From assembly GCF_000003815.2 (NCBI RefSeq), contig NC_049993.1, positions 6,406,489 to 6,470,488 of the forward strand: 64,000 nucleotides of DNA, read 5' to 3'. Each line of letters opens with the position of its first letter. The first letter of the stretch is position 1. A model generated the notes under the pieces. The model had not been told where the DNA came from. It was given only the letters and a program-made list of their open reading frames with translations, and did no database searches. A program made the position numbers and the translations under genes. This stretch comes from Branchiostoma floridae. Lineage: Eukaryota; Chordata; Leptocardii; Amphioxiformes; Branchiostomatidae. Positions 1 through 41,454 of the stretch are shown piece by piece.

Positions 1-3000
1 GTCTTACAGACTACCAGATATAAAACATTTCCACAAAACACAGGAACATTCACAACAAAAACATCAAATTACACAACACAAATCACAGCCTTACAACGAA
101 ACACCGACAGAACAAGCGACAGAGTAACACAAACAAGCTTAAAGACAGCATCAACTTCTTCCTTCTTCACAGCTACTCTCCTGTCTGAGATAAACACAAC
201 AAGAACCAGGAATGAAAACGGGACTATGACGGATTATCCACCGACGAACACGTCCCTACAACTTACTACAGACACGATACAACAGTCACACACTTCAGCA
301 GCAGCATCCATTGCTATTGGAAGCCAAACAGACGCAGCAACCAGTCACACTGGCACAAGTGCAAAACCAACTATAAACAATTCTACATTCTTCATGCCTA
401 CACCTTCCTCATTGGTGAGGGAACCCACTGTCAGTAACACACCATGACGACCAAACAAGTAGGGACCGACAATACGATACCTTCCACAACTGCAGCCCAC
501 GTAACGGACCATACCATCACATCTTCAGACAGATCCGCTACAGTTAATCCTACGGACATGCCGACTACATACATGACAATCATCGACAATATAACCCTAC
601 CCACAGACACAAGCAATTCAAGAAATATAATTGCAAACACGACCAATGCTCTTTCAACGAACACTGGCGGTACGTCATCATCAAAAGCAACCCTACGTAA
701 CCATATAATTACGCCAATGGCTTCTGTTGACAACTCTACATCTAACACAGCTCTAACCACGGCAATGTATACTGTCCCTATCTCATCCATAATCTCCTAT
801 ACTTCACCGTCTATGACAGCTTCTAGAGTGACCAGTCAGACTACTAAAAGTAAAACATACAACGCTACATCTCCCAATGTTAGTCAATTTGACACCGCAT
901 CTATGTCTTTGTTCAACAGCACCAGCTACAATGTGACGCTACAGGCATTTACAAGGACGACACATACAATGACGGCACCTACACCTATGTACTATAGTGC
1001 CAAATCAGCTACAGCCTCAAACACATCACATGACCTCACTGCATTGCCCTCAACAACCTCCGTCACCGGGGATGATGTAACAGCACCGACAACCACATAC
1101 AAAAGCACCAATGACGGCGTAACACTACCACCTGTTACACCTTCTAATCACACATTCAAATCACTGATTACTACATCAAATACCACCATTAGTAGCTCCA
1201 TGTCACGAAATTTCTCTACACATAGCCATACAACCTCCTTGACAATGACAAAATTCTCTACAAGTAACTACAACACATCAGCAACAACGACCGTTCCTTC
1301 ATTTGCTCATACCTCCATGTCACCAGTGACCAATACAACCAACAGTAAGGTCTCATTGCCAACAATGAACTATACTTACAGAACGCTACTGTCAACATTC
1401 AATACAACCAGTGACAATGACACACTACAAACAGTTTCCCTCTCCACTTTCGATACTACTTCCCTGTCAACAGCGACCACATTCAAAACTTCGGACAACG
1501 GTAGCATGTCAAATACAACCACTATGCATACAGTTGAATACACTGATATATCAAGAAGTACATCCGGTAACAATGGTACATTCCCAACAACACAACCCTT
1601 TACAACCAATCAAACTTCAATAGCACATAAAACTGCATTCAATGTAAGCAATGATATCGCAACTGCAACAGACACCCCATCAACAGTCACCCATACGCCA
1701 CTAGCAGCATTCAGTACAGCAAGTAAAAGTGGCAAATCAACAATCGCCACATTATTTACAATGATCTACACTTCAATAATACCGGATATTACTTCGCCAT
1801 CAGTTGCATACCCTACAGTTAATCGAACCTTCTCACCACATACTGACACTGTCAACATAAGCAGTAACAGTTCCACATCATATACGTCTACTCCTTCTTC
1901 CATCAAACATACTAGCAGATTCAGTACAACGGGTAACAACGTAAATTCACAAACGTACACAGATGTTCATTTGACACATAGTAAAACCGAGTCGTCCATA
2001 TCAAAAACATCTCGCGACAGCACTACATTACATACAGACATTACCACTACTCACAGTTCCATATCCAGCACAATCAGTCACAACACCACGTCTTACACAA
2101 ACACTACTCACACACCCAGTCATACTTCCGAATCCAGTAGTATCAATATTAACGCGACATCGCATACAAACGCCCTCCCTACACCAAACTTCACTTCAAC
2201 ATTCACCACGACCAGTGACAACGCCACATTACATGCAACTACACCCACTATCGACACGCACACTAGTACGCACACCACACCACCTACAGCCACTCTTCTC
2301 ACCGTCATTTACACTTCCATGTTCGATGCAATCAGAAACGACACGACACTACATACAGTACCTCCAGTCAGCAATGCTTCCATACCCAACACAACCAGTA
2401 GCATACCTGTATCACACACAGTTACACCTTACAGAGGCAATTACACTCTCACGTTAAATACAACTAGTAACGCTTCCGAATTCAACACAACCAGCAACAA
2501 TAACATGTCATATACAACTACTACTCTTACAACCATAGGATCATATACAACCACTACTCCTACAGCCATAGGATCATATACAACTACTACTCCTACAGCC
2601 ATAGGATCATATGCAACTACTACTCCTACAGCCGTAAGATCATATACAACCACTACCCCTACAGCCATAAGATCATATACAACGACTACTCCTACAGCCA
2701 TAAGTACCTTCCTGCTCAATGTAACAGGTAACGTCACCACTTTACATGCAGCTACTTCTCGTGCTGACTTTGCCACGTCTACATCCAATGAAATAAGCAA
2801 CAACAAAACTTCACAAACAACTGGTAATGTCAATTACACATCAAACACCACCAGTAGCATTGCCACATTGCGTACAACCACTCTTACAACAATCAGTCCC
2901 ATTTCCACAGTTAACATGACCAGTGACAACTCAAGACAGCACAATATCACCAATCCTACTTTTATATACAACAACACCAGTGATGCAGCTAGGATACAAA

Positions 3001-5355
3001 CAACCACTCCAGACTCTGGTTTCAATGACGCCTCACAAAATAACACCGCCAATGGCAATGAAAGAGCTACAATTACTCCATATACACCCAATTACATCTC
3101 CGTACTAAACACAACAAGTGACACAACAGCACCACATACATTAATTCATTCTACTGTTAATAAAAATTTGACCTCTGATACAACCGTTACCACATCTACT
3201 TTCAATACAGACGGTGACAACCCNNNNNNNNNNNNNNNNNNNNNNNNNNNNNNNNNNNNNNNNNNNNNNNNNNNNNNNNNNNNNNNNNNNNNNNNNNNNN
3301 NNNNNNNNNNNNNNNNNNNNNNNTCACATCATCATCACCATCTCCATCATCATCATCATTACCACCATCATCTTCCGATAGCAGTACATCATCAACGGCA
3401 GTAACCGCAGGTCTCACAATACAAGACACATTGTCACCATCTGCAGCTACAGTGGCTGATCATGCTTCTATGCCATCAACGACTACATCACCAGATACTC
3501 ACACACCTGTTCATTCATCAGTAGCAACAGGTCCAGCTGTTTCATTATCAACGACACGGAGCACCTTTACATCTACAACTCTCCCAAATACAACACATTA
3601 CTCCGATCCACCCTTCAACATAACATTTACGGCGACAGATCAAACAGATGATTTAGTAACTGCAAACGCCACCGTCAAAAGAGACGTTTCTTCTCCACCT
3701 CTCACTTACACACGACTGATGACTGCCAATACTAACATGACATCGTTTGACAAGCGCGACACCACATTGTCCTTGACAACGTCCACTGTGACCAACAGAA
3801 ACACTGCACAGAGCATCAGACAGCTACAGCGTTGATATTAAATACATTCTCATCATCAAGAGAAGATAACGATACAGATACGCTCTTCCAAAACAGGTAT
3901 ATCCACATCCGTGAGCTACATTACCACGCCACCAACACTAAAGCCCGTAGGAACTCAGTACATGTCCCATGCATCCACTACAACACCCGTAACAACAACA
4001 GGCACGTTAACATCTCATATTGATCTACTTACAAGAACAGATCATAACATCACGACGCCTAAAACAACAATCACGACCCCTGTATCAAAGTCTACACGTG
4101 CACCCGTAGAGTTAAACAAGTCTTTTCCGTCATCGACAGTCAGAGTTACAGAAAGTCTTCACTTGACCACATTGCCCATATCGAGAAATACGGCCACAAG
4201 TTCTGATATCACATTTTCAGTCAAACATGCGAACGGAACTACTACACCTTATGGTTATCAAAATGACACGGCGGTATTAACGACAGAGAATCAGACAAAA
4301 AGCTATAGTTCGACGACATTCATGACAACAGTAACGACGGACGATCATTCTGCTACATCACCTATGACAACGCCGCCAACAACCACAGCAACATTACCAA
4401 TGGTTACGTCTAGAAAAACCGATTCTTCCAATACGTCAATGGTGTTTGGCACACGCACAAAGGGTCCACACACTGACAGTACCAGAACAACAGGGTCGCT
4501 GTCACAAACTAAATCATTCGCTAGTGCTATAACCGTACCGGGGAACACATTACAGTATTCAAACAGCCCGGCCTTTACACAAATTCCTATCACAACAGGC
4601 ACGAAAAATACTTTACTGAAAACTATGTCCTCTTGGCAATACACAAAAAGAAATTTAGCGATATCCTCCACCGCCACCACAAGTGCACCGACTTCAGAGG
4701 TAAATTCAGACAACCTCGCCTCCACACAGGTTTCAACACTGGACACAGCAAATACTCGTTTAACATCACAACACATAACGGTTACACCGACATACCGACA
4801 TGAACAGCAAAACTCGTCGCACAATTTATCTAGAACGGAAATTCCCACATCTACTCTTTTACCAGCCACTGTGTCTCCTAGAACAAGGACAGAAAGTACG
4901 ACACCAACACATGAGGACGAACCTGCCACGATAGTTGTAGAAACAGAAACAGACATTCTTACAAACCCTCCAACTGTCGCTCGCCCACACACCAACACCC
5001 ACTTCAACAAACACAACCACACGACGGTACTTAGTAGGGAATCAACGGCAAGATTTACCACAGAGTCCAGAAAATCAGAAACAGCCACAACTTCAACAAT
5101 CATCAACGCAGAAGTGAGGACAACGACACAGACCACATCCAGAATCAAACTGGCGGACGTAGACGCCCCTCAGACTAAAAAGGGGTGTGAAGTGATGACG
5201 TTCCCAGCGCCCATAGGGACCGTGGCGAGAAGGGTTGAGGAGGACACCCCAGTTCACATGTACATCGCCATCGGGGGCGCCGCCGGCGGTGCCACACTGC
5301 TTCTCGCGGCAGCTATGCTGGGCTGGGTGTGTTGGCGGAGGACAATGGTCAAAAG
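1..5355 (+). CDS. Gene 1 large mucin-stalk and transmembrane exon (5' end not in window)
   Basis: The exon is open in frame 1 from base 1 to a TGA at 445-447. It then continues in frame 3 from about 438 to the gap at 3224-3323, in frame 2 to a TGA at 3833-3835, briefly in frame 1 (about 3825-3895), and again in frame 2 to the donor after 5355 (AAAAG|GTACAT). Each stretch has the same Thr/Ser/Asn-rich composition, so I read it as one exon with apparent one-base losses near 438-447 and 3815-3835 and a one-base gain near 3880-3905. The membrane segment is encoded at about 5260-5330 and is preceded by a lone Cys in KKGCEV. Codon use is strongly ACA/ACC-biased, giving a G-poor + strand. The long antisense ORFs here are shadows of that bias. 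Confidence 0.72.
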
Positions 5356-6242
5356 GTACATATGAACCTTAGTTGTGTTATCGTGTCAACTTGTGGTTTC
5401 ACTACAAGAATGTAAACAAAAAGAGACTAGTTTAGCATTTATAACTCTGGAATCTGCAATAATTTGAATGACATAATTCAACTTTCTTGCATGCATACGT
5501 TAATCTTAATGTTTCATTCTTTTGTCTTCAGGGCACATGTTTATACCAATGCGGGTTTTGCAAAAGGTATGTAGTATGCTTTACTATCTATGTTTCACTA
5601 CTGGTATATGCGGCACGTAACAGTACTAGTCTTTTAAACAACCATTCACATATGCAGATTTAAATCCATGCCAGAGAAGTGCAGTTCTAGAGCGCACTGT
5701 GACCTTATATGTGGATAAGCTGCAAATGGGTTCTTCATCAAATAGCATGGTTAGTGTCATGTGTCACTTTGATAGTACACAAATCTTTCCTCAACACCTC
5801 ACAGAAGATTCGCTCCGTCACCACGTTATGTTTACATATGATAATGTGTTATCTTCACTAAGTATGCCATTTTTCGTCAACAGAAAACATTATCTACGAA
5901 GATCCCATTTACCTTTGGCCCAAGGACATCGTAAACACAGGTAAACCCAGTGTTTCGTTTCCGTATAAAACATATGACGTAAAGAAGTAGCTAATTCATC
6001 CTATAGCACTGCATTCTTTGACATTTCAAAGCATTTTCTATGCGATCGTCAGTCTACTAGTTTGGCATACTCAAAACAGTCTTATCATGCGAAGATAACA
6101 TCCCGGTTCATCCCTCACAGACGACGTGAAATGGACCAGTGAAGACCAGGTGACCCTGTGGCCGTGGGAGGCCACTCCTATCTACCAGCGGCAGTGGTTA
6201 CCTACACCCTCCACCATCTCAGAGGAGGAGGAGATATCATAA
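1..6242 (+). CDS. Gene 1: mucin-like single-pass membrane protein, 3' part (spliced, 5' end outside window)
   Basis: I assembled this model from four exons: 1-5355, 5532-5566, 5884-5940 and 6121-6242. The splice junctions have matching phases (2, 1, 1) and canonical GT/AG. The extracellular part is roughly 1750 residues of Thr/Ser-rich sequence with very many N-x-S/T sequons. It is followed by a Gly/Ala/Leu-rich membrane helix (about 5260-5330) and a basic stop-transfer (WRR..MVKR). The cytoplasmic tail carries four tyrosines, in VYTN, IYED, IYLW and IYQR contexts, and ends in an acidic EEEEIS before TAA. Such proteins are heavily O-glycosylated surface molecules; the tail suggests tyrosine-kinase signalling, which is inference. 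The N-terminal domains, if any, lie upstream of base 1. No homologous named gene is recognised. It is oddly broken by three one-base frame changes and an N gap. It is probably a paralogue of the kringle gene downstream. Confidence 0.75.
2508..2705 (+). repeat. Six 33-bp tandem repeats in the gene 1 stalk
   Basis: Six consecutive 33-bp units (2508, 2541, 2574, 2607, 2640, 2673) encode an 11-residue repeat of the form SYTTTTPTAIG with small changes (N-A for T-A, V-R, I-R). Unit length is a multiple of three, so the frame is kept. This is a coding minisatellite of the mucin PTS type, and its copy number is likely to vary between alleles. Confidence 0.9.
3224..3323. other. Assembly gap (100 N) inside gene 1
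   Basis: Exactly 100 N, the usual placeholder for a gap of unknown size. It lies in a Ser/Thr repeat: the right flank is a (TCA)n-like tract encoding poly-Ser in frame 2. The frame change across it is therefore uninformative. Confidence 0.98.
5532..5566 (+). CDS. Gene 1 tail exon A (VYTN motif)
   Basis: A 35-nt exon between TCTTCAG and GTATGT. With AG carried over from the previous exon it encodes R-AHVYTNAGFAK and leaves phase 1. Y-T-N fits the pY-x-N consensus for Grb2-type SH2 domains; binding is inference. The phase match on both sides and the similarity to VYSNPVF in gene 2 support a real exon. Confidence 0.78.
5884..5940 (+). CDS. Gene 1 tail exon B (YEDP / LWP motif)
   Basis: A 57-nt exon between CGTCAACAG and GTAAAC, phase 1 in and phase 1 out. 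It encodes ENIIYEDPIYLWPKDIVNT. The EDPxxLW and N-T-D-D-V-K path, completed by the next exon, matches the tail of gene 2 (DDPQLLW, NIDDVK). Two tyrosines lie in acidic/hydrophobic contexts suited to phosphorylation. Confidence 0.8.
6121..6242 (+). CDS. Gene 1 terminal coding exon
   Basis: Follows TCCCTCACAG. It completes the phase-1 codon and encodes DDVKWTSEDQ, a Trp-rich stretch (LWPWE), IYQRQW and a closing EEEEIS, then TAA at 6240-6242. It is intracellular, with one further tyrosine. The stop is followed by AT-rich sequence. Possible poly(A) signals (AATAAA) are at 6688, 6946 and 7182; which one is used cannot be decided. Confidence 0.78.
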
Positions 6243-6436
6243 CAATAATATCTTCAGGTAAAGCTATTTATCATTGTAGTAAAAGTAAAAGATGACTTTC
6301 TCCCTATATATAACTATAAAGCACAATATGCTTCAATGAGTAGATAGAGTGTCGTTGGATCGGTAAGTTTACTAAACAGTGCCAGTGTTTGCTTATGGTT
6401 GTGGTACACCTTACGATCTCAAAAGTCGCTGTAATA

Positions 6437-6668
6437 CCCCTGTCACATTTGGCGAATATCGATCGGACGACGATTCTGCGGCAATCGCCCGAGCCTCGCT
6501 TATAATAATAACTTTATTTCACAACAATTGTACAAGGTACAAAGGATGACTTGTATGTGACAGGGATGGTTTTCAGGTGAAAAATACGCGCAACCCTCAG
6601 TCGATCTTAAATATAGCCGATCTTCCATCGATACGCCCGAAGATCGTGGATAATGTGACCGGGGCATA
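6437..6668. mobile_element. MITE-like element with CCCCTGTCACAT ends
   Basis: CCCCTGTCACAT at 6437 is mirrored by ATGTGACAGGG (6555-6565) and again by a diverged ATAATGTGACCGGGGCA ending near 6668. Internal sequence includes an ACTTTATTTCACAACAATTGTACAAGGTAC tail-like tract typical of retroelement 3' ends, so it may be nested. The same ends recur in the array at 20290, 23775, 27735 and 32490-33975. No coding content. Confidence 0.5.
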
Positions 6669-7529
6669 AGGGCTTTGTTGTATATTTAATAAAGATCTCT
6701 TCGTTTGGTCTTCGAGCGGTCGGAAAGAAGACATAAGCATGCGATGTCCACATGAATTATGCAAAGTAACCCAGGTCTCCCCTACTATTCTCAAAGTCTT
6801 TGATAGGTTTTCTAGATCTTCTGATATAGTAGTGAGTGCAGGAAGTGATCAGGTATGTTTCTTGTGTTTTTTTTACAGGGTAAAACAAGTGATTCCATGC
6901 CGCCATGATGACGTCAACAAAGCAGCCAGCAAATATCATGTCTACAATAAAGACTTTTTTATTGATGTACTTTTCATTACTGTGACATGAATTCCCAAGT
7001 GAGGTTGTTGACGTGCCCGCAGACGTAAATTTAATCTAACATGATGTAAATGACGTTCTATCATGGTTGAATCGGGGTCAAATATCATGAGCGCTCCCTC
7101 GCGTGAGCTGTTCATATTGCAGAATACGTCGAAATAGAATATCTCTGTTTTCTATGTACTGGCTCAGTCCATGAGTATGACAATAAAGTGATAATTTTCC
7201 TTTATGTTCTGTCCTTACTTGCCCTTTCCCTGTGGAGTTGAAGTAGATTAGACAGCCAAAAGACCATGTTCATTTTATTATATGGATGACATCCTCTGTG
7301 AACACGAAAACTGACGCGAGCGTGCGAATAAAAAACTTTGGCCAAAAAGGCCTTTATTACGAAATATAAATGATCAGGAAAGTTGAACAAATGACTGAAC
7401 ACACAGATTTTGTACTTTCATATCTTCTTCTTTGACTTTGTAATTTACTTTTGCATTCTCTGACATTAGTGTATATTTTCCGCTATGACCGTATGATTTG
7501 TCGACCTACGATGTACGATTTACAGTATT
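6669..7529. other. Intergenic, AT-rich; possible gene 1 3' UTR and partial MITE
   Basis: No ORF with recognisable content. It holds three AATAAA motifs (6688, 6946, 7182). From about 7270 there is a diverged copy of the TGGATGACATCC repeat whose mirror image lies at about 8095-8125, outside the 525-bp MITE. Confidence 0.4.
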
Positions 7530-8054
7530 GCCACAGCAAGTAAATTTTATGGATGACATCCTCTGCAGACTGCAAAAATAATGCGATAGGGCGAAAAAAA
7601 ACAAGACGGGTGAAAAAAAACAAGATGGCTTCATTTCCCAAACTAGGCACCATAAAGGTGTGATGAATGTTGTAACAAGAATCAAGGGGACAAAACATGG
7701 TATCAGAGCCAACAAGGCATTCATTCCTGAATTCAAGACATGTACTGGTGTGGTAAAAGTGACACTAGTGTGGCAGACTGGCATCACCAACAAAGTTGGT
7801 AACCACACTCATGGCTTCCATATTGGTGTCACTTTTACAATTAACTATTACAACTACAGTCCTGAGTACCTCGCAAGTGTCACTTCTACAAGTACAATTA
7901 TTAAGCTACAATACAACATATTTGCTCATTTTGGTACTTTATCGTCATGTTGGCCATCCCTGAAGAAGAAAGGAAATCTTGTTTTTTTTTTTCTGAAATA
8001 AGGTGAAAATCAATGCGCGCGCGGATGTCATCCATAAAATTTACTTGCTGTGGC
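7530..8054. mobile_element. 525-bp MITE with perfect 32-bp terminal inverted repeats
   Basis: The 32 bases at 7530-7561 (beginning GCCACAGCAAG) are the exact reverse complement of 8023-8054 (ending CTTGCTGTGGC). The interior is non-coding; an ORF at 7660-8001 shows no domain and sits inside the element. It is flanked by diverged inverted copies of the same TGGATGACATCC core (about 7275 and 8105), so it appears nested in a relative. Perfect ends suggest recent insertion; that is inference. Confidence 0.8.
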
Positions 8055-8140
8055 CTATGGTAGAAAACTTTTTTCTTCTTACAAACAGCCGAAAATTGAT
8101 GCGCACGCGGATGTCATCCATGTAATCAAATTAACAAGGC

Positions 8141-9233
8141 CTAACAAGAGGAAATGTTGATACATTAACACTGGGTCACGTATGAAAACGGTATCTGTAT
8201 CCATATATCATGGATGCTCTCATCATGACGTACTGACCAAAAATAAGCAAGGAGTTTAAAAATAACCGATGATGTTGTAAATAGATGTTTTATCTATTTC
8301 TAATGGTTGTCAAGTGAATGTTTTGCCTTTGAGTCTATAATAAACATAGCAAAATCAAAACATATTCAGCTGACTGTACGTGCGCCCGGGGCCCACATTT
8401 CGCTGTGTTCGTGTAATCATATCATCTATCTCTGTCGCTTATCCAGTGTTGACCTTGGTAGATGACGTTTTACCACAGGAAAAACAGAAGAAAGACAAAA
8501 AGTTGCCAAGATCTAAGCAGGTGTATTTACAAAACCTGCCATTCCTATTCTTAAAATCGATAACATATCGAGTCAAACGTTCGTCATGAAATAAAAGATT
8601 TTTGTTTTGGAGTGAGTGGATACGTCAGAGAGGGATTAATATTTGATAAGGCTACGTGTTGAACGCTTGTCCTAAATTAGATCGTTTCTTAAGAACATTC
8701 CCAGCGGTACCGTCGACAGATGTGGTGTTTAAGTCAGAAGGGCAGTATCACGCATTCCTGTGTAACAGCCCAACACACTAAGGTAGGAACTTCACGTATG
8801 TACTCTTTCCTATACGTTGCGGATATAACTCAAAGAGTGGTTAGTTTATATGGTTATTACATCTTATAGTATTACTGTAGTGACAAAAAGAGCAAATGTT
8901 TATTTAGCAGAAGCTTGTAATAGCTTATTGCGAATATAGGTATCATTACTATAATGGTTCTTACGCATCATTGCTGATAACAAAGTAATATCCGTTTTCT
9001 GATCATCTGTAAGATGATTTTGATAGATAAACTACAAACACTCTGGGTTTTGAAGCCACAAGTAAATTTTTCTATTCACTGGTTTAGTTGATCATGGTAC
9101 ACAGCCAGGGCTGCCCAACTAGCCTCTGACAGTCTGGCTATTACAAAGGGCTAGACCTACTGGTAAAGACTATTCGGATGGAATAAAAGGTTGACATAAA
9201 CATGATGAAAGTTGTTAACTAATTATTATTTCA
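8141..9233. other. Intergenic region upstream of gene 2
   Basis: No supported coding exon. A short non-coding 5' exon of gene 2 ending in CACACTAAG|GTAGGA near 8780 is possible but unproven. Otherwise unique-looking AT-rich sequence. Confidence 0.3.
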
Positions 9234-9275
9234 TACTGAAAGGATTGTGTGGACTACTGAAAGGATTGTGTGGAC
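9234..9275. repeat. 21-bp direct duplication upstream of the gene 2 start
   Basis: Two exact, adjacent 21-bp copies (9234-9254 and 9255-9275; core GAAAGGATTGTGTGGAC) lie about 50 bases before the start codon of gene 2, within its probable 5' UTR or promoter. Confidence 0.85.
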
Positions 9276-9324
9276 TAACCTATTTGACGCTTTTTAAAGT
9301 AAAGAAGTGCGGACTCGGCTGGCG

Positions 9325-9385
9325 ATGGCCCGGTACGCTACATTGGCGGTTATGGTTACACTTCTGTTCGCCAGTAAAGGCAGTG
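9325..9385 (+). CDS. Gene 2 exon 1: signal peptide
   Basis: ATG at 9325 opens [20 protein letters not shown]: a short basic start, a hydrophobic core and small residues before cleavage. It ends at donor G|GTAAGT in phase 1. The hydrophobic leader directly before the first kringle exon decides this start. Confidence 0.82.
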
Positions 9386-12300
9386 GTAAGTACACACTAA
9401 GGATACCAGGCACAGATTCAAGCACAGAGAGAGGGGTTGAGAAAGAGAGAGAGTGGGAAGGGAGAAAAAAATTGTAACTAGAGGTTTTAATGGGCATAGG
9501 AGTTGAGAAAGAAAGAGACGGAGAGAGAAGTATGGTATTTAAGGCACAAACGTAACAACACGTATGCCGTAACAACTTCTAAAAGTATGCAATTTTGAAC
9601 ATTAGTTTTAAACATTAAGGCCTTAATCTTGGAATGAATTAATTCTTGTCTGTACCAAACGGTATATTTGTTTACTGCTATACGTGTTAGCATTGTGATT
9701 TTACAAGCAATTAATGATCAATTATAATGCAACGTCCTTGCTTTGATTGGATTAATAATGTCAGTGTCTGTCAATGTGAAAAATTCTGACTTAAAGGCAT
9801 TTTTCATGGAACACAAGAATCCCTAAACGCAATGTTGACGCAGCCGCCATAACCACACGTTAGGGCTTTTGTAAGTACCCAGATTGAAGCGACAATCTGA
9901 CGGCGAGGCTCTCACGCAAGGGAAGAATTGTCAATTACCAAAGGGCACCGCATCCATTGTAAACTAAGTCAACCATCCGCCACTGGTTTTATCAGATTAG
10001 CTTCCCAACACTTTTTCATGGACCATAAATGTTGCTGTAAAGACATGGACATGAAGTAACAAAATGGCTTATTTAGCGTTGTTTCTTCAAAAACGATGCC
10101 TTTCCTGCATATATCATCCACACACAGCCAAACATGACTGCCCTTTGTGCTGAACACCATCCACACACAGCCAAATATGCCTGCCCTTGGTGCTGAACAC
10201 CATCAACACACAGCCAAACATGCCTGCCCTTGGTGCTGAACACCATCTGCACACAGCCAAATATGCCTTCGATTGGTGCTGAACATCATTCACACACAGC
10301 AAAACATGCCTATCCTTGGTGCTGAACACCATCCACTTAAAAAACAAACCTGTCCTTGGTGCTGAACACCACTCACACACGAAACATGTCTGTCTTTGGT
10401 GCTGAACGCCATCCATAGGCAAAATACACCTTCTTATCCGACCATGCATGTTGTGTATCCGCATGTGGTGCTTTCCCAAAACCAGCAACAATTAAGAGAC
10501 TAACAATACACACAATACGTATTGTTGTTGAACACTGGTTATATATATTTTCCTAACAGGAAGATACTGTCTGGAAGGTGACGGCACCTCCTACCGCGGA
10601 ACAGTCTCAGAGACGGGATCAGGGTTAACATGTCAGGCTTGGGGCAGCCAGGCCCCACGTTCTCATAGGTACGTCTTATACTAGACAACCCATCTATCAT
10701 ACAACACACCTGTTCCTTCATCTGCACCAGAACTGAAAAAAGAGAAGTGGAATTTATCTAATGTTAGTTGTATCTTGTATCTGTTAAATGTATTACTTCA
10801 ACATGTCTTGTTGTGACCTGTATTTAGCCCGATGTGGCAAAAAATGTGAAATAAAGGTGTACATTAAATCTCTTATGCACAATCCAAGGCGTAAATGTTT
10901 AAAGCGACATTGAACAAAATGGAGGTGGCTACTTCGTTTGTCTATCCTAAACGGGAATAACCATGATAACAAACGGGTCATTTTATCAAATCGCTTTGAA
11001 CAACACTTGGAGATTGATGAGTCCAGGCACATTGCTTGATTTAACATTACACCGTTTCGTCGAGTGTTACATCCTCTTGGACCACACAGCTGTGCAAGCG
11101 CAGAAAATGCTACAGCAGGCGGCTGCAACTTGACGGCTGGTTGTGCTATGCGTGTCTTATCCCTTAGTACTCATCGCTGTTCAAAGAAACCGTATATATT
11201 ATTGTTACCAAAAACAGATACACGAAACGGAACGGAAAGTGTGTTCTAAAATCTATTTTGTTCCAACCTGTAATTGTGATCATATTGAATATCCCCAGGT
11301 TTCGCCCTGAGGACTATCCAGACGCCGGACTGGAGGAGAACTACTGTAGGAACCCGGATGGAGATCCCATGGGCCTTTGGTGCGTGACGACGGACCCTAG
11401 CAGGGACTGGGAGTACTGCACCGTCCCGTCATGCACCCGTACGTTGTATCTATTTACTCTGGGATGTAAGTGGATTTTGCCAGTTCATTCTAGTGACGCT
11501 GAAGAAGAGTGATGGGTGTCACTCGAAACATCCGGAAGTAAATCTCCGTTAATATCCAGTTGAGGAGATGAATTGTATTTGTTTACCTGGATATCTAACC
11601 TTCATAAGTTATTAGGTGGGCAGTGTAATCACATAGTTTCCAGTTAGAATTTTCATTCAGCTTGCTTCCCCTATTCAAGTAAAAAGCCTGCTTGTCCTAT
11701 CTATTGAAGGATAAATGTATCCACAGACGTTTAACCATTATGCACAAAATCTAAGTTTGACATTGAAAATATAAGTGTCCTCATGTATTTTCTCATGCAT
11801 GTATGTTTTGGCCAAGGTCTAAAAACGAAAAAAAAAATCTTTAAAAAAAGATAATCCTTCACTGACCCTAATTTTTCAGGACTGAAAAAGGAAACACAAT
11901 ATGTCTTTCCTAGGCCTCATCTTGATTATGCTCAAATGTCAATACTACAACAAGTAGGGGGATAGAGCCATATAAAATAGATACCGTTACCCTTCTCATG
12001 GGAAACCTTCACCTGTTCCAGCCAACATCCTCCACTGCCTGTACGCATCACAACACCAGTTCCACTGCACCAACGGCGACTGTGTCCCGCAGGACTACGT
12101 GTGCGACGGCTGGTATGACTGTGGTGACTGGAGTGACGAGCTCAGCGGCTGCCGTAAGTACCGTCACCCCCCATTGTTTACATGGAACTATGATTTTAAA
12201 ATGACAGTGGAAGTCGGATACTCCAACAAACAGAATCTTCTTTGTAGTGAGATGGACCATTGTTTTGATTATCGCCCATTTACAAGTTTTCACATTCAAC

Positions 12301-15300
12301 CAGGTCAACCTAGTGATTACGTATACAAGACGGTTTGTGAATCAAAATTACAGTTCCGGCGTACCTGATCAAATAAGGTGTTTGCTCCGACGCCATGACA
12401 GCCACTACAGGCAAAAGATAGCTGTTTATTCGTCCACGGATTCGGAGGTTGCTACTTTTCAGCGCCCGCACTTACAAGATGTAGAATACTGGCAATCCTT
12501 CCAGTGTGCGATTGTATAGTTTTGACTTGGCAAGTCACCAAATATATCTAAAGCTGTAAGATCTATTCATGTCTAGGCTTGAGAAAACACTGCTTTTTGT
12601 GGGTTTGATTATATCTGTCAAATACTAAGTCATACTTTCTTCCCTCCAAACTTGCAGCATGTCTAGAAGGAGACGGTACCTCATATCGTGGCTCCATCGC
12701 CGAGACCAGTTCCGGACTAACCTGCCAAGCCTGGGACAGCCAGGAGCCACATCTCCACGACTACGGGCCGGAAAACTATCCAGATTCCGGACTGGAAAAC
12801 AACAGTTTCTGCAGGAATCCGGACGAAGATCCGAACGGCCCTTGGTGTATCACAGTGGACCCGGATAAAGAATGGGAGTACTGCACTATTCCTTTGTGTG
12901 GCGGTAAGTGTTTACGTTTATGTTTGTTATCAAAATGAGTACTCCAAACTTTGCCCTACAAACTTTTTAAAATATTTTATGCCACTCACTATTTCAAAAC
13001 AAAGATACAGAAGAGTCTGGAACAGTTCAAGGGAGGGGTTCCTCAAAGAGAGCGACAATACCCTGCCATGTGATTTCACCGCTAAAACCAACCTTGTTTG
13101 GCGGGACTCTTACGATACTTTGTTTGTGATTCAGGAACTGCGACAGTGCGAACACCACTGATTCAATGGTCAACTAAAACATCAGCCCAAACATCCTCAC
13201 ACCTTCCTTCGACTTCAATTGTCTCCACTCAAGTTGGGGGCTCCTGGCGACCAAACGATAATGCTGTCACCAAGGCAACGAAGGCAAGCAACACAGGTTC
13301 TACAAACCATCAAACTACCAACGATTCCTTGTCATCAACCTCACCTACAACTCCAACTCCAAATTTTCCAGAAAGCGTGTCTAAAAAAGTTACCAAAACC
13401 ACGGACGTTATGTTGTCCACAATTGGTAAGGTGACATCCACCAATGCAAAATTGCCACCCCATACAGACATGGTACAATCCAAAACCTCTGATGCTTCTA
13501 CTACCACAGCCACAACTGCCATGCCAGCTTCTCCCGCCAGGAGGCCAGCCTCTGTTTCTACCCTACATACCACTAGTTTTCCCAGCCCTGTACTGTCCTC
13601 TACGGTACCACAAACATCCAGACCTGAAACTGCTCCGCCAGACAGTACCGGTCCCTACTGAAATTGATATGTCTATTCCTAGTTCTACCATAACCACTCC
13701 GGTGTTATCCTCTACCCAAACAAGAGAAATGGATACTACACAATTGCAAGCATCTACCACTAACTTGTTATCAACTTCTACCATATCCAAGGTAATCAAG
13801 CCCTTTACTGTGGCAACATCAACAACCCCCAGTCGGTCTTACCTTTTTACTACAGCAAGTAAAACTGAACTGCCACTTGATTCTTCACACGCTGCCTCTG
13901 TATCCAGAAAAAGACCAACCCCAGTCCCTACAGTTTTCACAACACTGGCTACTCAGATGCCAGAACCTGGCTTTTTTTCAACAAGTGATAAGAGAACCAA
14001 CAGTGCGAGCATGACAGGTACTGCAACTACCGTCAGGATTGGCGCATCAACACGTAAACTTCACCCAAGAAGCTCCTATACAGCACGCAAGACAACAGGT
14101 GTTTCTTATCTCATGCCGTCAGCTAGCAATAACTTGCTAGCCGCTTCGCGACCTCCCATACCAAGTTCTCCATTCAGTGAAATAAAACTTTTCACCACGA
14201 TGCAGGAAACGTTCGACGAAAGTTCCAGTTCCACAGATAAAATCGAAATACCACAAACTACTACAGATGCTGCACAACTCAACTCTGACTCTACGGCCAT
14301 GAAAACCCCAGTTTCAGCTCAAGCATTTTCAACGCCTGTCACTCAAATGATAGGACCTGATGACTCTTTGGAAACTATACGTAGTACGGTAGTCAACCCT
14401 ATTAGCATGACAAGTACTGCAACCACCGCCAGGATTGGTACAGCTACGCGTAAACTCCACCATGGAAGCTCCAACACAGTAAGCAAGATGGCAAGCGTTC
14501 CTTACGTTATACCGTCATCTACCATTAAATCTCTGCCAGCCTCACAATTTGCGATACCGACAACTTCTAAACCCAGTGAAAGAGAATCTGACGAAAACAT
14601 GACGACACCGACACAGAAAACTACCAACGAAATCTCAAGTTCAACAACTCAAATCGTAATTCCAGAAGCTATTACAGATGCTATAAAACTCAACTCTGAC
14701 TCTACCGCCAGGAATACTTCATCCTTTCCTCTCATCTCCACTTTTGTAACAGAACCGGTCTCACCGAAGACAAATTCTGACGACTTAATCCATGCACAAA
14801 CCACCAGTGTAGCTACAACGGCTAAACTGTTTACAGCAACATATTGGAGAACACGTGAATTGTATTCCAAAACCTCCACGCTCTCTACCACAACTAAGAC
14901 AACAGAAGTCCGTATTTCCAAAACACTCCCGAATACAATTGGACCTGACGCTACAGTCACTCAAAATAAAACTCTGTTTCCGTCTACTATTCATCCTATA
15001 ACCAAACCAAGAACATCGACTGTGCGGTCAACGACTTCAGGGAACACTGCAGCAACACCAGCACAAGTGTTCACAACATCTATCACAAGCAAACTTCCTA
15101 CTGAGGCAACGATACAAATTGCAAGTGCTACAGACGCTCCGGAGCAAATAACGGCCAGTACAAGGCCGTTATCCTCGCCAGCTTTACCTCACAAGTCGGA
15201 TACAACTGGACAAAGCACAACAACAAATGATGACAATTTAAAATATGCAATGACATTGGATTTAGGAAGCAGAGGAAAAGGAAATGACAAACAACAAGAC

Positions 15301-18300
15301 GACGGCGACTCGGTTACAAGACCCCAAACCTTCGCAGCTATAGGAGGCACAATCTCTGTGTTGGTGCTACTTGGGGTTCTGATATTCGCGTTGTTGGTCT
15401 ACCGGAGGAAGAGAAGAAAAGAGTAAGTAGTGAACGATACTCAGGTGTATGGAGACAAATATTACTGTAAATGCGTAAACGTTCGCGGTGGATTAATGTT
15501 TGCGGTTTTCGCGGTGGCCGCTTCACCGCGAATTTTAAACCACCGCGAACATTTTTCCATGGCAGTAAGAGACTACTGTAACAGTGCATGGTGCTACCGC
15601 GAACTTAAAACCACCGCGAAAAGTCCTTTTTCTTGCTACCGCGAAATTAAATCCCCGCGAACTTAAATGCATTTACAGCTTACTGTTCAAGATACATGCG
15701 TGTATATACCATTTTCCAAGCATTGTTATTGTATTTCGATGTAGCATTTTGTGCACCTTTTCGTATGTCTCAATCAGAGGTAAGAATTTTTTTAGTTGAC
15801 CCTCTCTCTTGATATGTTTTATATTTCAGGACAGTGACAGTGGAGGAAGCAAGGTATTTTATTTGCTTTTACATTTGTTAAAATGCATTACTGATTACAC
15901 AGCGGAGGGCCGTGTTATCTTTTCATATGCATGATAAGAAATCATCGCCAAAAGATCATATGTGGGCAACATTGATAAAGAATATATTATAGACCATGTT
16001 GCGTGGTCTGTTAGTCCATAGGCCAGAACGCCAAATTTCAAATATCGGTACTCTCTAAGTGGCAAATTCTCCTTGTTATTTTTGAATAGTAGAAGGCCTG
16101 TATCATATATTTTGATGTGATAGCCTTTCTGGTATAGTAGCTTTCTACCGGCTATCAGCCTTCAAACCTATCACCATCTAAATGATCTGGAAATTTCGTG
16201 TCTTAAACAAAGGGGGGGGGGTCAAAAATTAAACATAAATATTTTTCCATTAAAATTCACACTCTGGGCTGAGAACCTGCTAAGCTAAAAGGATCATAAA
16301 ATATCAATTAATTTTCGATATCATGATTCAACACAAAATTAAGACCACCTAAAATCGGATTATTTCTGATTTTTTCGTCAAAAACATATACTTTATTTTC
16401 CAATATCGTGCATTTATTCACATTACTTATGTGGCCTTGCCTGATGAGATAGACTTACCGTTCGTATCATGCCCTGCATATCAAAATATGATCGAAATCC
16501 GTCAATAATGATGGCACATGACCTCGAAATTTTTATTATATGCAAATCCTCCAGCCTGTCATAGGGTATCGAGTTTTGATACACGATAGCAACACATTTC
16601 CATTAGATCTCCCTCTGATTCAATTCCAACACTGTATTCATCATACTTAGTTACGCCTATGATATTGATTATGAAGTAGCAGATGTTTAAAAGTGATCGT
16701 CTTTATTTCTTCTAAATGAGATAGTATACAATGCGTGACACCAAAGCATGGCTTTTAGCGTCCAGATGTAACAGATATGCCTGCACGTGCGTGACTTCTT
16801 CGATTCAACAGCGGATAATGATCTGTGAAACAAACCTTCATGCCATGAATATTTGTGCACAGGCTTACTGCCACGGTCATGGTCATGGTCATGGGGCAAA
16901 ATAATAAACATTTGCGACCTGCATACCGCTCGGTTCTGTTCTTGTATCTTATAACGTTTACATGAATAAGCACAGTACGGACCGTGCTGGGGGGACGGTA
17001 AAGAAGGGAAGTGTCGAATACCTTGTTTATCAAGACTCTCCTAATATATATGCAAATGGTGGAGCAACGCCTCTATCCTGCCACAGGGTGTCGGGTTTTA
17101 CTACGCGATAGCAACACGTTTCGATAAGATCTACTTCTCATACCATTCAAACAGTTTCTTAATCATACTTGGTTATATTTAGATACTGATAATGAATTAG
17201 AAGCTATCTAAAGAGTTACATTTGTTATAAATGAGACACTATACGAAACACTGAATGAACTTGCACCATAGTTGGCTCCTTGCCTTGTTCTGAATGTCCA
17301 GATCCAACAGATATATGCCTGTACGTGACTTCTCCTGTACTGATAATGATTTGTTAAACAAACGGCCGTGCCATGAATATGAGTGATCGACCGTAACTGC
17401 GCCACTGGACCATAGCATGTAGAAACTGCCGTGCAGCTCACTTGTCATCTGTACACAAAGTAAAGTACAGAATCCTTCTTGTGCTGCAGTACTGTAACGT
17501 TACAGCGTAATTCTGTCCAAGCATCTTTTGTTCATATCTTTAGTAGATCTATGAGGATATCCATCGTAATTTCGGTAATTAATTAACTTGATTTGATTTT
17601 CGACGGCCACGGTTCTACTAGCCTGTGAATTTTGATGGAAAAGTATTAATGTTTAATTTTTTGCCCCTACCCGTTGTTTAAGACACGAAATTTCCAGATC
17701 ATTTAGATGGTGATAGGTTTGAAGGCTGTTAGCCGGTAGAAAGCTACCATACCAGAATGGCTATCACATAAAGATATAGGCCACAGGCTTTCTACTATTC
17801 AAAAATAACAAGGAGAATTTGCCACCCCGGAGGTACCGATTTTTTTCTCTGGCCCATCGACAATATACGTTTGGTTAAGAACAATCACCGTCGAATGTCT
17901 CGCACAATACACGTACGCTATTCAAGACAATAGTGCGTATTTGTTTTCGCACGCAACGCAAATTCCCACATTTTATGCATGTTGATTTATTCATACCTTT
18001 AGATATCCATATAACGTTATGTGTGTTAAATTGTATGTAGCTGTTATACATGTAGACCTTACGAAAGTCGCTGCACTTTTGTCGTGTCTCAATAAAGATT
18101 ATTATTTGTTTGCTGTCAATTTTTTTCAGAGAACATCCCCGCTCTTCGACTGACGTCTACAGCAACCCGGTATTTGACCAGTAAGAAATGAATAATGATA
18201 TTATTGATTATATATGCTTTTGATTCATTTTTGTCTTCATGAATTCAGGTTTCAATATCAATAGATGTAGAGCCATTCTTGAGGGTTTCCTAGATTCTAT

Positions 18301-18557
18301 TGTGTCTCTTATAAATATTTAGAAACACTGAAGATGGACGCGGCACTGCCTCGTTCGACGATCCTCAGCTTCTGTGGACGGAGAAAGCAGACAACATTGA
18401 TGACGTCAAACCTGATGATGACGTCCTAGGTGACAGTGCCTACCACACCCTCCGTGGGTGGACTGAAACCAGCACCCAATTTGAGAACACCCATGACGAA
18501 GCAGGAAGAAAGACAGATGCACAAAGAAGTGAAAACGAGCATGTACATGTAGTGTGA
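9325..18557 (+). CDS. Gene 2: kringle-LDLa-kringle mucin-stalk type I membrane protein
   Basis: Nine exons with fully matching phases: 9325-9385, 10560-10668, 11299-11438, 12022-12153, 12658-12903, 13135-15422, 15830-15853, 18130-18180 and 18323-18557, about 1095 codons. Order of parts: signal peptide (1-21); kringle 1 (Cys24-Cys102); LDLa (Cys109-Cys147); kringle 2 (Cys149-Cys228); Ser/Thr-rich stalk of about 750 residues; membrane helix ([14 protein letters not shown]) with RRKRR stop-transfer; tail with [14 protein letters not shown] and NIDDVK. Kringles bind lysine-containing or glycan ligands and LDLa modules bind ligands with calcium, so this is a likely cell-surface recognition protein; the ligand is unknown. 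The stalk exon has one apparent frame change. The tail resembles that of gene 1. It is not KREMEN or ROR: no WSC, CUB, Frizzled or kinase domain is seen. Confidence 0.85.
10115..10412. repeat. 43-bp minisatellite in gene 2 intron 1
   Basis: About seven tandem copies with starts near 10118, 10161, 10204, 10247, 10290, 10333 and 10372. The core reads CACACAGCCAAACATGCC followed by TTGGTGCTGAACACCAT. The antisense ORF over it (10114-10491) is just the repeat read through and is not a gene. Confidence 0.88.
10560..10668 (+). CDS. Gene 2 exon 2: first half of kringle 1
   Basis: Acceptor CCTAACAG, donor ATAG|GTACGT, phase 1 to phase 2. It encodes [12 protein letters not shown], a Ser/Thr-Gly turn and [14 protein letters not shown], the standard kringle opening with Cys1 and Cys2 and the conserved SYRG and CQAW motifs. 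The intron after this exon splits the kringle in its middle. Confidence 0.9.
11299..11438 (+). CDS. Gene 2 exon 3: second half of kringle 1
   Basis: Acceptor ATCCCCAG, donor CACCC|GTACGT, phase 2 to phase 1. It encodes the [20 protein letters not shown] region, [13 protein letters not shown] and [10 protein letters not shown], supplying Cys3-Cys6. The D-x-D (NPDGD) and the aromatic W and W-x-Y positions known from lysine-binding kringles are kept. Kringle 1 is 79 residues Cys-to-Cys, the normal size. Confidence 0.92.
12022..12153 (+). CDS. Gene 2 exon 4: LDL-receptor class A module
   Basis: Acceptor CTGTTCCAG, donor GCC|GTAAGT, phase 1 to 1, a self-contained shuffled-module exon. Six cysteines follow the LDLa pattern, with F-x-[20 protein letters not shown] and a final Cys. 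The calcium-cage residues of the C-D-G-x-x-D-C-x-D-x-S-D-E signature are all present. Kringle 2 follows with only one residue between the two domain cysteines. Confidence 0.93.
12658..12903 (+). CDS. Gene 2 exon 5: complete kringle 2
   Basis: Acceptor AACTTGCAG, donor GGCG|GTAAGT, phase 1 to 1. One exon holds an entire 80-residue kringle: [59 protein letters not shown] and the last Cys. Unlike kringle 1, it has no internal intron. The D-x-D (NPDED) and aromatic lysine-site positions are kept. High similarity to kringle 1 suggests an internal duplication. Confidence 0.93.
13135..15422 (+). CDS. Gene 2 exon 6: Ser/Thr-rich stalk and transmembrane helix
   Basis: Acceptor GTGATTCAG, phase 1 in. 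The exon is open in frame 3 to a TGA at 13659-13661. A Ser/Thr/Pro-rich reading then continues in frame 1 (from about 13640) to the membrane helix and donor AAAGA|GTAAGT, phase 2 out. The switch behaves like one extra base near 13630-13660. There are two diverged internal repeats: the block at 14012-14300, with TATTVRIG and TRKLHP then ITDA/TTDA..LNSDSTA, recurs at 14405-14710. The helix is preceded by FAAIGGT and followed by YRRKRRKE. A mucin-like, O-glycosylated stalk lifting the N-terminal modules from the membrane is inferred. Confidence 0.82.
15463..15680. mobile_element. Palindromic GC-motif MITE in gene 2 intron 6
   Basis: ACTGTAAATGCG at the left is mirrored by GCATTTACAG at the right. 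The interior is built of alternating direct and inverted copies of a TTCGCGGTGGT / ACCACCGCGAA motif with TTTAAATTC-like spacers (at least eight occurrences). This element type is common in marine invertebrate DNA. It starts only 40 bases after the splice donor. Confidence 0.72.
15830..15853 (+). CDS. Gene 2 exon 7: 24-nt microexon
   Basis: Flanked by ATATTTCAG and GTATTT. It carries phase 2 through and encodes ETVTVEEAR with its neighbours. It is short, but the phase on both sides and the later reading frame only work if it is included or cleanly skipped (24 is a multiple of three), so it could also be an alternative cassette. Confidence 0.62.
16021..17854. mobile_element. 1.8-kb non-autonomous element with ~240-bp inverted terminal repeats
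   Basis: The arm at 16021-16262 (starting GGCCAGA) and the arm at 17624-17854 (ending TCTGGCC) are reverse complements with scattered differences. They include the tract AATTTCGTGTCTTAAACAA and its mirror. Between them are two direct copies of a ~350-bp block (16539-16880 and 17049-17410, both opening TATGCAAAT). No transposase reading frame is visible. It fills most of gene 2 intron 7. Confidence 0.78.
18130..18180 (+). CDS. Gene 2 exon 8: VYSNPVF tail exon
   Basis: Acceptor TTTTTTTCAG, donor GACCA|GTAAGA, phase 2 to 2. It encodes [21 protein letters not shown] fits pY-x-N. The position and sequence match VYTNAGF in gene 1. It is preceded by a long pyrimidine tract. Confidence 0.85.
18323..18557 (+). 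CDS. Gene 2 exon 9: terminal cytoplasmic exon
   Basis: Acceptor AAATATTTAG. It encodes [20 protein letters not shown], the [13 protein letters not shown] stretch, then SAYHTLRGW and a hydrophilic end with HVHVV before TGA (18555-18557). The FDDPQLLW and NIDDVK blocks match gene 1. A candidate poly(A) signal AATAAA lies at 19095-19100, already inside repeat sequence. Confidence 0.82.
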
Positions 18558-18886: not shown

Positions 18887-20012
18887 TATCATTGTGTGTA
18901 CCTTACAACTTGACACTGTCCATCAGCGCTTGATACCAGTACAAATATGCATATTGAATTTTTTTTCAATATTTGACAGGCGTTCTAGCTTTTCCGTTAG
19001 AAGTGTATTATTTTCAAAATCTCCATTGTTTTTGTTCCTCATGATAAGAGACCACTCTGTTTTCAGGCGAAGATCTCATGACCTATTGAACTGCAATAAA
19101 TAAAAGCAACTTGCATAAGATCGCCATGGTGGCTGTAGTCAGTGTCTGTGGGCGTTTACAGGCGACTGAAAAGTTGTACATTTACAGTCATATGAAAGCC
19201 TGATGGATTAACGTCTTTGAGCCAGGTCACTGCATTTTGGGAACAATGACTTATGTACATTTCGTAATACGTTAAGAAGCCGTTTAAATGCACAGCCTAT
19301 TTGCCAGCGTATTTCGTGCAATTATCCGACTGGAGCAATAATGCGAAGTTATCCAGCTGAACCGCACCTTTGTGGGATTTGGGATACCAGTTAACAAAAC
19401 TGTGCGTTAATGCGTTAACAATGCAAAAGCTTCTTCAGTCCTATAATTGGACGTTATCCGTCGAGGTCAGAATTCAACGGGTTGAACAATTCTAGAAGCT
19501 TGTGTTGTAATAATGAAGGATTCTCAGGAAGTGACCGTTGTAATAAATGTCAAAATTCACAACCACCTCCTGCCGCATTTGTTGATGACCAGAGGGTCGT
19601 GATTTTCAGAATCAACAGAGAGCAGCCCGTATTTTTCACCTGGACATCTACTTCATATATGAGATAAGCTTTACTGACACGGCAAAAAGTACAATGACTT
19701 TTGTATTGTCAACTATAAACTCGAAAAAAAACAGAGTGGATACCGAATACATCTTAAAACTCTACTAAGTGGATACAGAATACATCTTAAAACTCTACTA
19801 AACAATGTAGGGCTAAACGTGAGTGTCAGTATCTTTTCTGATCACAAAACAATCTTCATATTTGTCAAGAGAACAACTTCGGATCCTCAGCGCGATAGGT
19901 TGATCTATTTTGCTGCTGTGTAACACGTCATGTTGTGTAGCACGTGATGTTGTGTAACAGGCTTAATGACGTATACCTTTGAGTTTGATCACCGTCCGAC
20001 ACTAAAGTTATT

Positions 20013-20197
20013 AACAAACAAAAAAACTACGGCTACTCAGTTACGAGAACTAAAACCTCCGCAGCTGAGCAGTAGAAAAGAAGAGGGAGGCTCAGACGCT
20101 GCCTTGGTGTTACTCGGCGTTCTACCGGCGTTGTTGTTCTTCCGGAGGAAGAGAAGAGAAGAAAAGAGTAAGTAGTGAACGAAACTATGTATGGAGA
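20013..20197 (+). pseudogene. Decayed copy 1 of gene 2 transmembrane exon and donor
   Basis: Matches gene 2 from about 15288 to 15470: the ACAAACAA tract, GGAGGC, the helix codons, RRKRR, the GTAAGTAGTGAACGA donor and the TATGGAGA intron start. Two length changes are seen: a 16-bp insertion before GGAGGC and a 5-bp AGAAG insertion before the donor, which would shift the donor phase from 2 to 1. Exons 7-9 are absent downstream. It ends SDAALVLLGVLPALLFFRR then KRREEKSK. It is a gene fragment, not a gene. Confidence 0.82.
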
Positions 20198-21079
20198 AAA
20201 AATTTGAATTTTTTAATACTCGACCTGCGCTCTAGCTTTTTCGTCTCGAGTGTTTCATTTTCAAAGTCTCCGTTGTTTTGTTCCTTATACCCCAGTCACA
20301 TTAATGATTATGTACGATCTTTGGACGTACTTCGCAATCGCTGGAAGGTCGGCAAATTTTAAGATCTTCATAGGGTCTTGTGTATTTTCCGCCCCAAAAC
20401 TGTCCCTGTCACATATAAGCGAGACTCGTGCGATCGTCAGTGAATAAATGATAATGAACTTCCCATAACCTATTGCACGCGGACAAGGTAACACAAAACG
20501 TTCATCGCAAAAGGGCAAGAGATCAATACATGTTTATTCTTTTGTTGTCGGATTGTCGAAATCTTTTTAACCAATTAATGGAATGCGCGGGCATACTAGA
20601 AATGACAAATAAAAAGAAAGCGTGTCACGTGCCAGCCTACGTACTACTACAGGGGCCACGATGTCAGACTTACCCTCACATTTAAAGAAATTCAATATTT
20701 GCAAGAAAACCGGGCGTTCGCCATCCGATTTGCAAAATTGAAAAATTTTCCGGACCTCCCTTGTGACGACTAGCGCCCTCGGGGCGGGCCTGGTGAACAT
20801 GATGTGGTGGGAGAGTCGCCCTCAAAACCTTTCCCACGAATAAAGATTCATTGATCTAACCTTAGTTTAACAGCAAAATTTACCCCTTAAAATGCATGAA
20901 ATGACGTTTCAGAGGGTCCAGATTGCAAATTTCCCAGACCTGCATAGCAATGCGTGCTCGCGCCTTTGGTGTCGGACATGGTGAAAACGTGTCGGGGGAG
21001 TCTCCCTCAAAGACTTATGCCAAAAAGCTTGTGTAACTTAATAGCAATTCCATTAAACTTGGCCAGCAAATTTTGCCTG

Positions 21080-41450: not shown

Positions 41451-41454
41451 GATG

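What the first reader, a model, noticed from the sequence alone, without database searches (positions are those of the whole stretch)
5356..18557. Two tandem mucin-stalk genes share a conserved cytoplasmic motif set
After splicing, the gene 1 tail reads VYTNAGF, YEDPIYLW, VNTDDVK. The gene 2 tail reads [22 protein letters not shown], in the same order and with similar spacing. The stalks are low-complexity and uninformative, so this tail is the best evidence of common descent. pY-x-N is the Grb2 SH2 consensus, so a signalling surface-receptor family is plausible. I know of no described family with this combination.
Basis: partly seen in the sequence, partly recalled or inferred. Interest (0 to 1): 0.78.

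Follow-up and report, generated by a model that had tools for sequence, protein, structure and literature searches.

The report
Paired kringle-mucin receptors with matching tails
Two neighbouring genes, apparently from a lancelet, look like duplicated cell-surface proteins with kringle heads, long sugar-bearing stalks and short inner tails that share three small motifs; it is a modest variant of known membrane-mucin receptors, and what the tails do is untested.

Summary
The spliced tails read as stated; every named junction is GT-AG and in frame. Tail similarity exceeds chance: 10 of 20,000 shuffles score as high and 0 of 6,126 translated genomic pieces do. The tail is not the only evidence of kinship. 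Gene 1's front half lies upstream of the window: two kringle exons before a Thr/Ser-rich stalk. Gene 2 reads kringle, LDLa, kringle, stalk, TM, tail. Layout says tandem paralogues; kringle trees neither establish nor reject sisterhood. Genome searches with each tail found only its own exons, but missed gene 1's own VYTNAGF exon, so a wider family is neither shown nor excluded.

Both tails share Y-[TS]-N-x-x-F. This fits Grb2-type pY-x-N, as in MUC1 YTNP, and equally a phosphorylation-independent N-x-x-F sorting signal; the second motif's tyrosine is Phe in gene 2. I favour a kringle-headed, mucin-stalked receptor whose tail acts in sorting, perhaps with switchable Grb2 binding. Gene 1's stalk has frame breaks in the assembly, and four decayed tail-less copies of gene 2's TM exon follow. 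A real but modest variant of a known kind.

The parts
1..5237 (+). Gene 1 mucin-like stalk (begins upstream at L004:9246); 100-N gap at 3224-3323; frame breaks near 438-447 and 3833-3841
   Evidence: T 0.23-0.27, S 0.12-0.20 in its four open pieces; 48 N-glycosylation sequons in 438-3221
5258..5335 (+). Gene 1 transmembrane segment MYIAIGGAAGGATLLLAAAMLGWVCW
   Evidence: hydrophobic run followed by RRTMVKR, read by eye
5532..5566 (+). Gene 1 tail exon with VYTNAGF (5539-5559)
   Evidence: GT-AG, phase 2 in, phase 1 out
5884..5940 (+). Gene 1 tail exon with YEDPIYLW (5895-5918) and the start of NTDDVK
   Evidence: GT-AG, in frame
6121..6242 (+). Gene 1 last coding exon, DDVKWTSEDQ...EEEEIS, stop
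9325..9385 (+). Gene 2 first exon, signal-peptide-like [20 protein letters not shown]
   Evidence: ATG and donor, phase 1; signal peptide judged by eye
10560..10668 (+). Gene 2 kringle 1, first half
11299..11438 (+). Gene 2 kringle 1, second half
12022..12153 (+). Gene 2 LDL-receptor class A module
   Evidence: Pfam PF00057 E 2.7e-10
12658..12903 (+). Gene 2 kringle 2, single exon
   Evidence: Pfam PF00051 E 8.4e-53 for the protein, two stretches
13135..15422 (+). Gene 2 stalk plus TM; frame changes near 13661 unless a short intron (candidates include 13426-13540 and 13431-13509) is removed; TM 15331-15402
   Evidence: TM by eye
15830..15853 (+). Gene 2 24-nt microexon, in frame, skippable
18130..18180 (+). 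Gene 2 tail exon with VYSNPVF (18155-18175)
18323..18557 (+). Gene 2 last coding exon with FDDPQLLW (18354-18377) and NIDDVK (18393-18410), stop
20014..20288 (+). Decayed copy of gene 2 TM exon joined to a 3'UTR piece, tail exons missing; sister copies start at 23536, 27475 and 32210
   Evidence: 70-78% identity to 15287-15459/60 and 79-82% to 18954/18984-19042

Best explanation
The two genes are adjacent, same-strand paralogues encoding type I surface proteins: kringle modules (with an LDLa in gene 2) held off the membrane by a long Thr/Ser-rich, presumably O-glycosylated stalk, one TM helix and a short tail. Shown: the domain order, phase-1 borders of the ectodomain modules, open tails, and tail similarity above chance. 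Inferred: the kringle/LDLa heads bind protein ligands, the stalk displays them, and the shared Y-[TS]-N-x-x-F, acidic DP..LW and N-x-DDVK motifs are adaptor docking sites. I think N-x-x-F works as a constitutive FERM/PTB sorting signal for uptake or recycling, and that tyrosine phosphorylation could switch the same site to Grb2-type SH2 binding, much as MUC1 YTNP is reported for both internalisation and GRB2 binding.
For: Exons and tails; tail score 51, reached by 10 of 20,000 shuffles and 0 of 6,126 genomic pieces; Kringle and LDLa Pfam matches in gene 2 and two Kringle matches upstream of gene 1's stalk; ectodomain exon borders phase 1 except the intron inside gene 2's first kringle (gene 2 computed, gene 1 read by eye); stop-to-ATG distance 3.1 kb on the same strand. 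MUC1 SSLSYTNP listed as interacting with GRB2, and internalisation said to depend on YHPM and YTNP (passages of PMC5039420). SNX17 FERM binds NPxY/NxxY cargo, and its own NxxF tail segment lies in that pocket in the authors' model (passages of PMC11772769).
Against: No transcript was available. g1K2 ranks only 40th of 150 scored genome kringles against g2K2, itself counted. In the first kringle tree g1K1 falls outside the other three window kringles; in the second, with plasminogen kringles and without g1K1, g1K2 does not join g2K1/K2, though one clade is not rejected (p-AU 0.4). Tail intron phases differ after the first intron. A cysteine-pattern scan for LDLa printed nothing for the 20 kb upstream of the window, so gene 1 seems to lack that module.
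Confidence: 0.55

Rival explanations
1. Phosphotyrosine signalling receptor: a kinase phosphorylates the Tyr of VY[TS]N, Grb2 docks and drives Ras/MAPK signalling.
For: Y-x-N is kept in both tails; MUC1, a transmembrane mucin, has the same kind of site, listed as interacting with GRB2 (PMC5039420 passages).
Against: Among the three motifs only one Tyr is shared; the second motif's Tyr is Phe in gene 2; the conserved Phe at N+3 is not needed for Grb2 (recalled). Motif-level only, untested.
Confidence: 0.25
2. Tail convergence: two unrelated kringle-mucin genes acquired similar short sorting motifs independently, or the similarity is chance picked out after the fact.
Against: 10 of 20,000 shuffles and 0 of 6,126 genomic pieces score as high; the genes are neighbours with the same head, stalk, TM and tail order.
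Confidence: 0.15
3. Gene 1 (perhaps also gene 2) is a decaying duplicate and the tails are relics.
For: Gene 1 stalk frame breaks at 438-447 and 3833-3841; four decayed TM-exon copies follow gene 2.
Against: The tail splice sites are canonical and the tails have no internal stop; stalk frames stay open for 928 codons (gene 1, 438-3221), 507 codons (gene 1, 3842-5365) and 556 codons (gene 2, 13663-15330). An N gap lies about 500 bases before the second break.
Confidence: 0.2

Closest known systems
MUC1 (vertebrate transmembrane mucin)
   Same: Thr/Ser-rich stalk, TM and short tail with a Y-T-N site; MUC1 SSLSYTNP is listed as interacting with GRB2, and YTNP as needed for internalisation (PMC5039420 passages)
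   Different: No SEA domain in the two stalk/TM pieces scanned; kringle and LDLa heads; no proline after N in gene 1; a following Phe that, as I recall, MUC1 lacks
Plasminogen/HGF-type kringle proteins
   Same: Gene 2 kringle 2 aligns over its whole length with all five plasminogen kringles; NPDxD and the next Trp, which I recall as lysine-binding, are kept against kringles 1 and 4, and the last Trp against kringle 4
   Different: No protease domain in the pieces scanned with Pfam; membrane-anchored; the Arg before the last Trp/Tyr is Glu in kringle 2 and Asp in kringle 1
Lancelet kringle/LDLa proteins already reported
   Same: Kringle and LDLa modules in amphioxus Adhesion GPCRs (PMC2246102 passages) and in SRCR-Kringle-LDLRA-Trypsin proteins of Branchiostoma (PMC6337849 passages)
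   Different: Those are seven-TM receptors or protease-type proteins; here a stalk, one TM helix and a short tail follow
LDL-receptor-type cargo tails (NPxY) and the SNX17 NxxF segment
   Same: N-x-x-aromatic, with an aromatic two residues before N; gene 2 reads YSNPVF
   Different: Phe in place of the final Tyr; binding untested

Membership tests
Transmembrane mucin | Long Thr/Ser-rich stalk followed by one TM helix | tested here: met
   T+S about 0.35-0.43 in the six stalk pieces measured; TM and basic stop-transfer read by eye in both genes
Transmembrane mucin | Dense O-glycosylation | not testable with these tools
   sequence only
MUC1 family | SEA domain next to the TM | tested here: not met
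   Pfam scan of window 13435-15426 and 3842-5365 gave no SEA; one Syndecan match, E 0.35, below cut-off
Kringle protein | Kringle domain by profile | tested here: met
   PF00051: gene 2 E 8.4e-53 (two stretches), gene 1 exons E 2.2e-20 and 3.6e-28
Grb2-recruiting receptor | Y-x-N in a cytoplasmic tail | tested here: met
   VYTN and VYSN; sequence motif only
Grb2-recruiting receptor | Phosphorylation-dependent SH2 binding | not testable with these tools
   needs peptide binding
SNX17/PTB cargo | N-x-x-[YF] motif in the tail | tested here: met
   NAGF and NPVF; NPxY/NxxY and NxxF wording from PMC11772769 passages
SNX17/PTB cargo | Binding to a FERM or PTB domain | not testable with these tools
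   needs peptide binding
A wider lancelet tail family | Further TM genes with all three motifs | tested here: inconclusive
   own-genome searches with each tail found only its own exons; gene 1's VYTNAGF exon was missed by its own query, so sensitivity is low
Sister paralogues by kringle sequence | g1K2 with g2K1 and g2K2 as one clade | tested here: inconclusive
   together at 85/69 in 34 rows, g1K1 outside; not together but not rejected, p-AU 0.4, in 38 rows with plasminogen kringles and without g1K1

The most novel reading that the evidence does not exclude
A lancelet-specific kringle-mucin receptor class has independently arrived at a MUC1-like tail in which one seven-residue element, V-Y-[TS]-N-x-x-F, is at once an N-x-x-F endosomal sorting signal and a Grb2 site, so that phosphorylation of one Tyr toggles the receptor between recycling and Ras signalling; DP..LW and DDVK form a second, shared docking surface for which I know no named partner.
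Probability: 0.15. Interest if true: 0.55.

Novelty: new variant of a known kind. Interest (0 to 1): 0.32.

Why it matters
If real, it shows mucin-type receptors with a Grb2/NxxF tail arising on a kringle-LDLa head outside vertebrates, a natural comparison for MUC1. The two diverged tails single out which tail residues matter, which makes the mechanism testable with short peptides.

Tried and rejected
Pfam on the two tails: no family up to E 10. Syndecan match of the gene 2 TM region, E 0.35, 11.3 bits against a 25.2-bit cut-off: rejected as a generic TM resemblance. Tail as the sole evidence of descent: rejected once gene 1's kringles were read upstream. Kringle tree as proof of a sister pair: rejected, it depends on sampling. 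The trees held 30 other lancelet kringles of the 149 others scored, chosen by likeness to g2K2, plus the window genes. Dropped before the trees: two duplicate kringle fragments (in L009 and L010) and pieces under 70 aa; g1K1 was also left out of the second tree as a long branch. C18 kringle cluster as tail-sharing relatives: 13 kb distinct were fetched (L038 and L039 overlap); the frames of L038 show, by eye, an LDLa-like and other modules, and the motif scan of the loci then held and the window (431,244 residues) showed, apart from the genes' own exons, one VYSNLAF preceded by a stop, in L038. Only that one cluster of the kringle loci was followed beyond 1.5 kb flanks. Nine open frames elsewhere (eight in the window, one in L004) have no Pfam match at E 0.01. 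A search with gene 1's second kringle and one with the decayed TM-exon copy did not complete. Papers: searches 'amphioxus kringle mucin' (one limpet paper, unopened), 'amphioxus kringle low-density lipoprotein receptor' (30), 'Branchiostoma kringle domain' (33), 'transmembrane mucin evolution lancelet' (46) and 'kringle mucin-like transmembrane LDL receptor class A' (77, 10 of 14 listed) showed, by title and start of abstract, no description of this architecture.
Full report
What is there. The window is G000:C15:6406489-6470488 of a 513-Mb genome. Gene 1: exons 5532-5566, 5884-5940, 6121-6242, intron phases 2, 1, 1. Gene 2: 15830-15853 (24 nt), 18130-18180, 18323-18557, phases 2, 2, 2. All are GT-AG and in frame.

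More than chance? Local alignment of the tails scores 51; 10 of 20,000 shuffles of tail 2 reach that. With the microexon left out the score is 54 (3 of 20,000), and with cheaper gaps 60 (6 of 20,000). As a background of real sequence, 6,126 pieces translated in six frames from the window with tail exons masked and from 33 fetched loci gave a best score of 47 against tail 1 and 46 against tail 2, so 0 of 6,126 reach 51 in either direction. A run without masking had one piece of 6,134 over the line in each direction; both were the genes' own last exons. The best match of tail 1 in the window outside gene 1 is gene 2's last exon, E 0.043.

What the genes are. Gene 2 runs signal-peptide-like exon (9325-9385), kringle 1 (10560-10668 and 11299-11438), LDLa (12022-12153), kringle 2 (12658-12903), Thr/Ser-rich stalk, TM, tail. 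Gene 1 starts before the window. In L004, the 10 kb upstream, two kringle exons (L004:3792-4049 and 8159-8401 by eye; Pfam E 2.2e-20 and 3.6e-28) come before a stalk that starts at L004:9246 and runs into the window in one frame. A cysteine-pattern scan for LDLa printed nothing for the 20 kb upstream. Both stalks begin at a phase-1 border. The stop of gene 1 (6240-6242) and the ATG of gene 2 (9325) are 3.1 kb apart on one strand. This shared layout, with the tail, is the case for a tandem pair.

Limits of that case. Gene 2's two kringles are 68% identical; g1K2 is 57% identical to each. A search of the genome with g2K2 gave 485 candidates, 150 scored; the nearest after itself are on C18 (60-67%), and g1K2 is 40th of 150. 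A tree of 34 kringles puts g1K2 with g2K1/K2 at 85/69, with g1K1 outside. With plasminogen kringles added and g1K1 left out it does not, but one clade is not rejected, p-AU 0.4. Kringle sequence therefore does not decide.

A wider tail family? Single-protein searches of the genome gave 2 matches from 2 scored candidates for tail 2 and 2 from 3 for tail 1, all the genes' own exons. Tail 1's query missed its own VYTNAGF exon and gene 2 altogether, so at most close copies are excluded.

How it may work. Kept between the tails: V-Y-[TS]-N-x-x-F, then [FY]-[DE]-D-P-x-x-L-W, then N-x-D-D-V-K. Y-x-N is the Grb2 SH2 consensus (recalled). MUC1, a transmembrane mucin, has SSLSYTNP listed as interacting with GRB2, and its internalisation is said to depend on YHPM and YTNP (passages seen in PMC5039420). 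But the Phe three after Asn is also kept, and N-x-x-[YF] fits FERM/PTB sorting: SNX17 FERM takes NPxY/NxxY cargo, and a segment of SNX17 with Phe in place of Tyr occupies that pocket in the authors' model (passages seen in PMC11772769). The Tyr of YEDP is Phe in gene 2, so that motif is not a shared phosphotyrosine site. I rank sorting first, with Grb2 as a possible switch on the same site. All binding is inference.

Heads. Gene 2 kringle 2 aligns with all five plasminogen kringles; it keeps NPDxD and the next Trp against kringles 1 and 4 and the last Trp against kringle 4, but has Glu where those have Arg (roles in lysine binding are recalled). Kringle and LDLa modules in lancelet proteins have precedent in Adhesion GPCRs (passages of PMC2246102) and in SRCR-Kringle-LDLRA-Trypsin proteins (passages of PMC6337849).

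Integrity. An N gap lies at 3224-3323. Gene 2's frame change near 13661 can be cured by any of 11 short or medium candidate introns. Whether the gene 1 breaks are assembly errors or real is open.

Around it. Downstream of gene 2 a tandem array carries four decayed copies of its TM exon (15287-15459), each joined to a 3'UTR piece (18954-19042) with the tail exons absent.

Verdict. Five paper searches (listings, with passages of two listed papers) showed no description of this architecture in the held library.

Noticed in passing
20014, 23536, 27475, 32210 (array about 19.0-35 kb): Four decayed copies of gene 2's TM exon fused to its 3'UTR, tail exons gone, spaced 3.5, 3.9 and 4.7 kb; two copies share a 16-nt insert, and all four have a 3-nt loss and a 5-nt gain.
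   Followed up: partly
35056-45008: Large inverted repeat built largely from 291-298-bp satellite units; arm pairs 82-99% complementary among the 25 longest shown.
   Followed up: no
16040-16261 and 17624-17844: Inverted pair, 89% identical, inside gene 2's tail intron; looks like the ends of an inserted element.
   Followed up: no
438-447 and 3833-3841: Frame breaks in gene 1's stalk that no single intron in the scan explains; the second looks like two compensating shifts about 60 nt apart.
   Followed up: partly
10113-10415: Diverged tandem repeat of about 85 nt inside gene 2's first intron.
   Followed up: no
G000 genome: 150 scored kringle matches (485 first-look candidates), many in clusters, for example on C3, C4, C5, C7, C8 and C18.
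   Followed up: no
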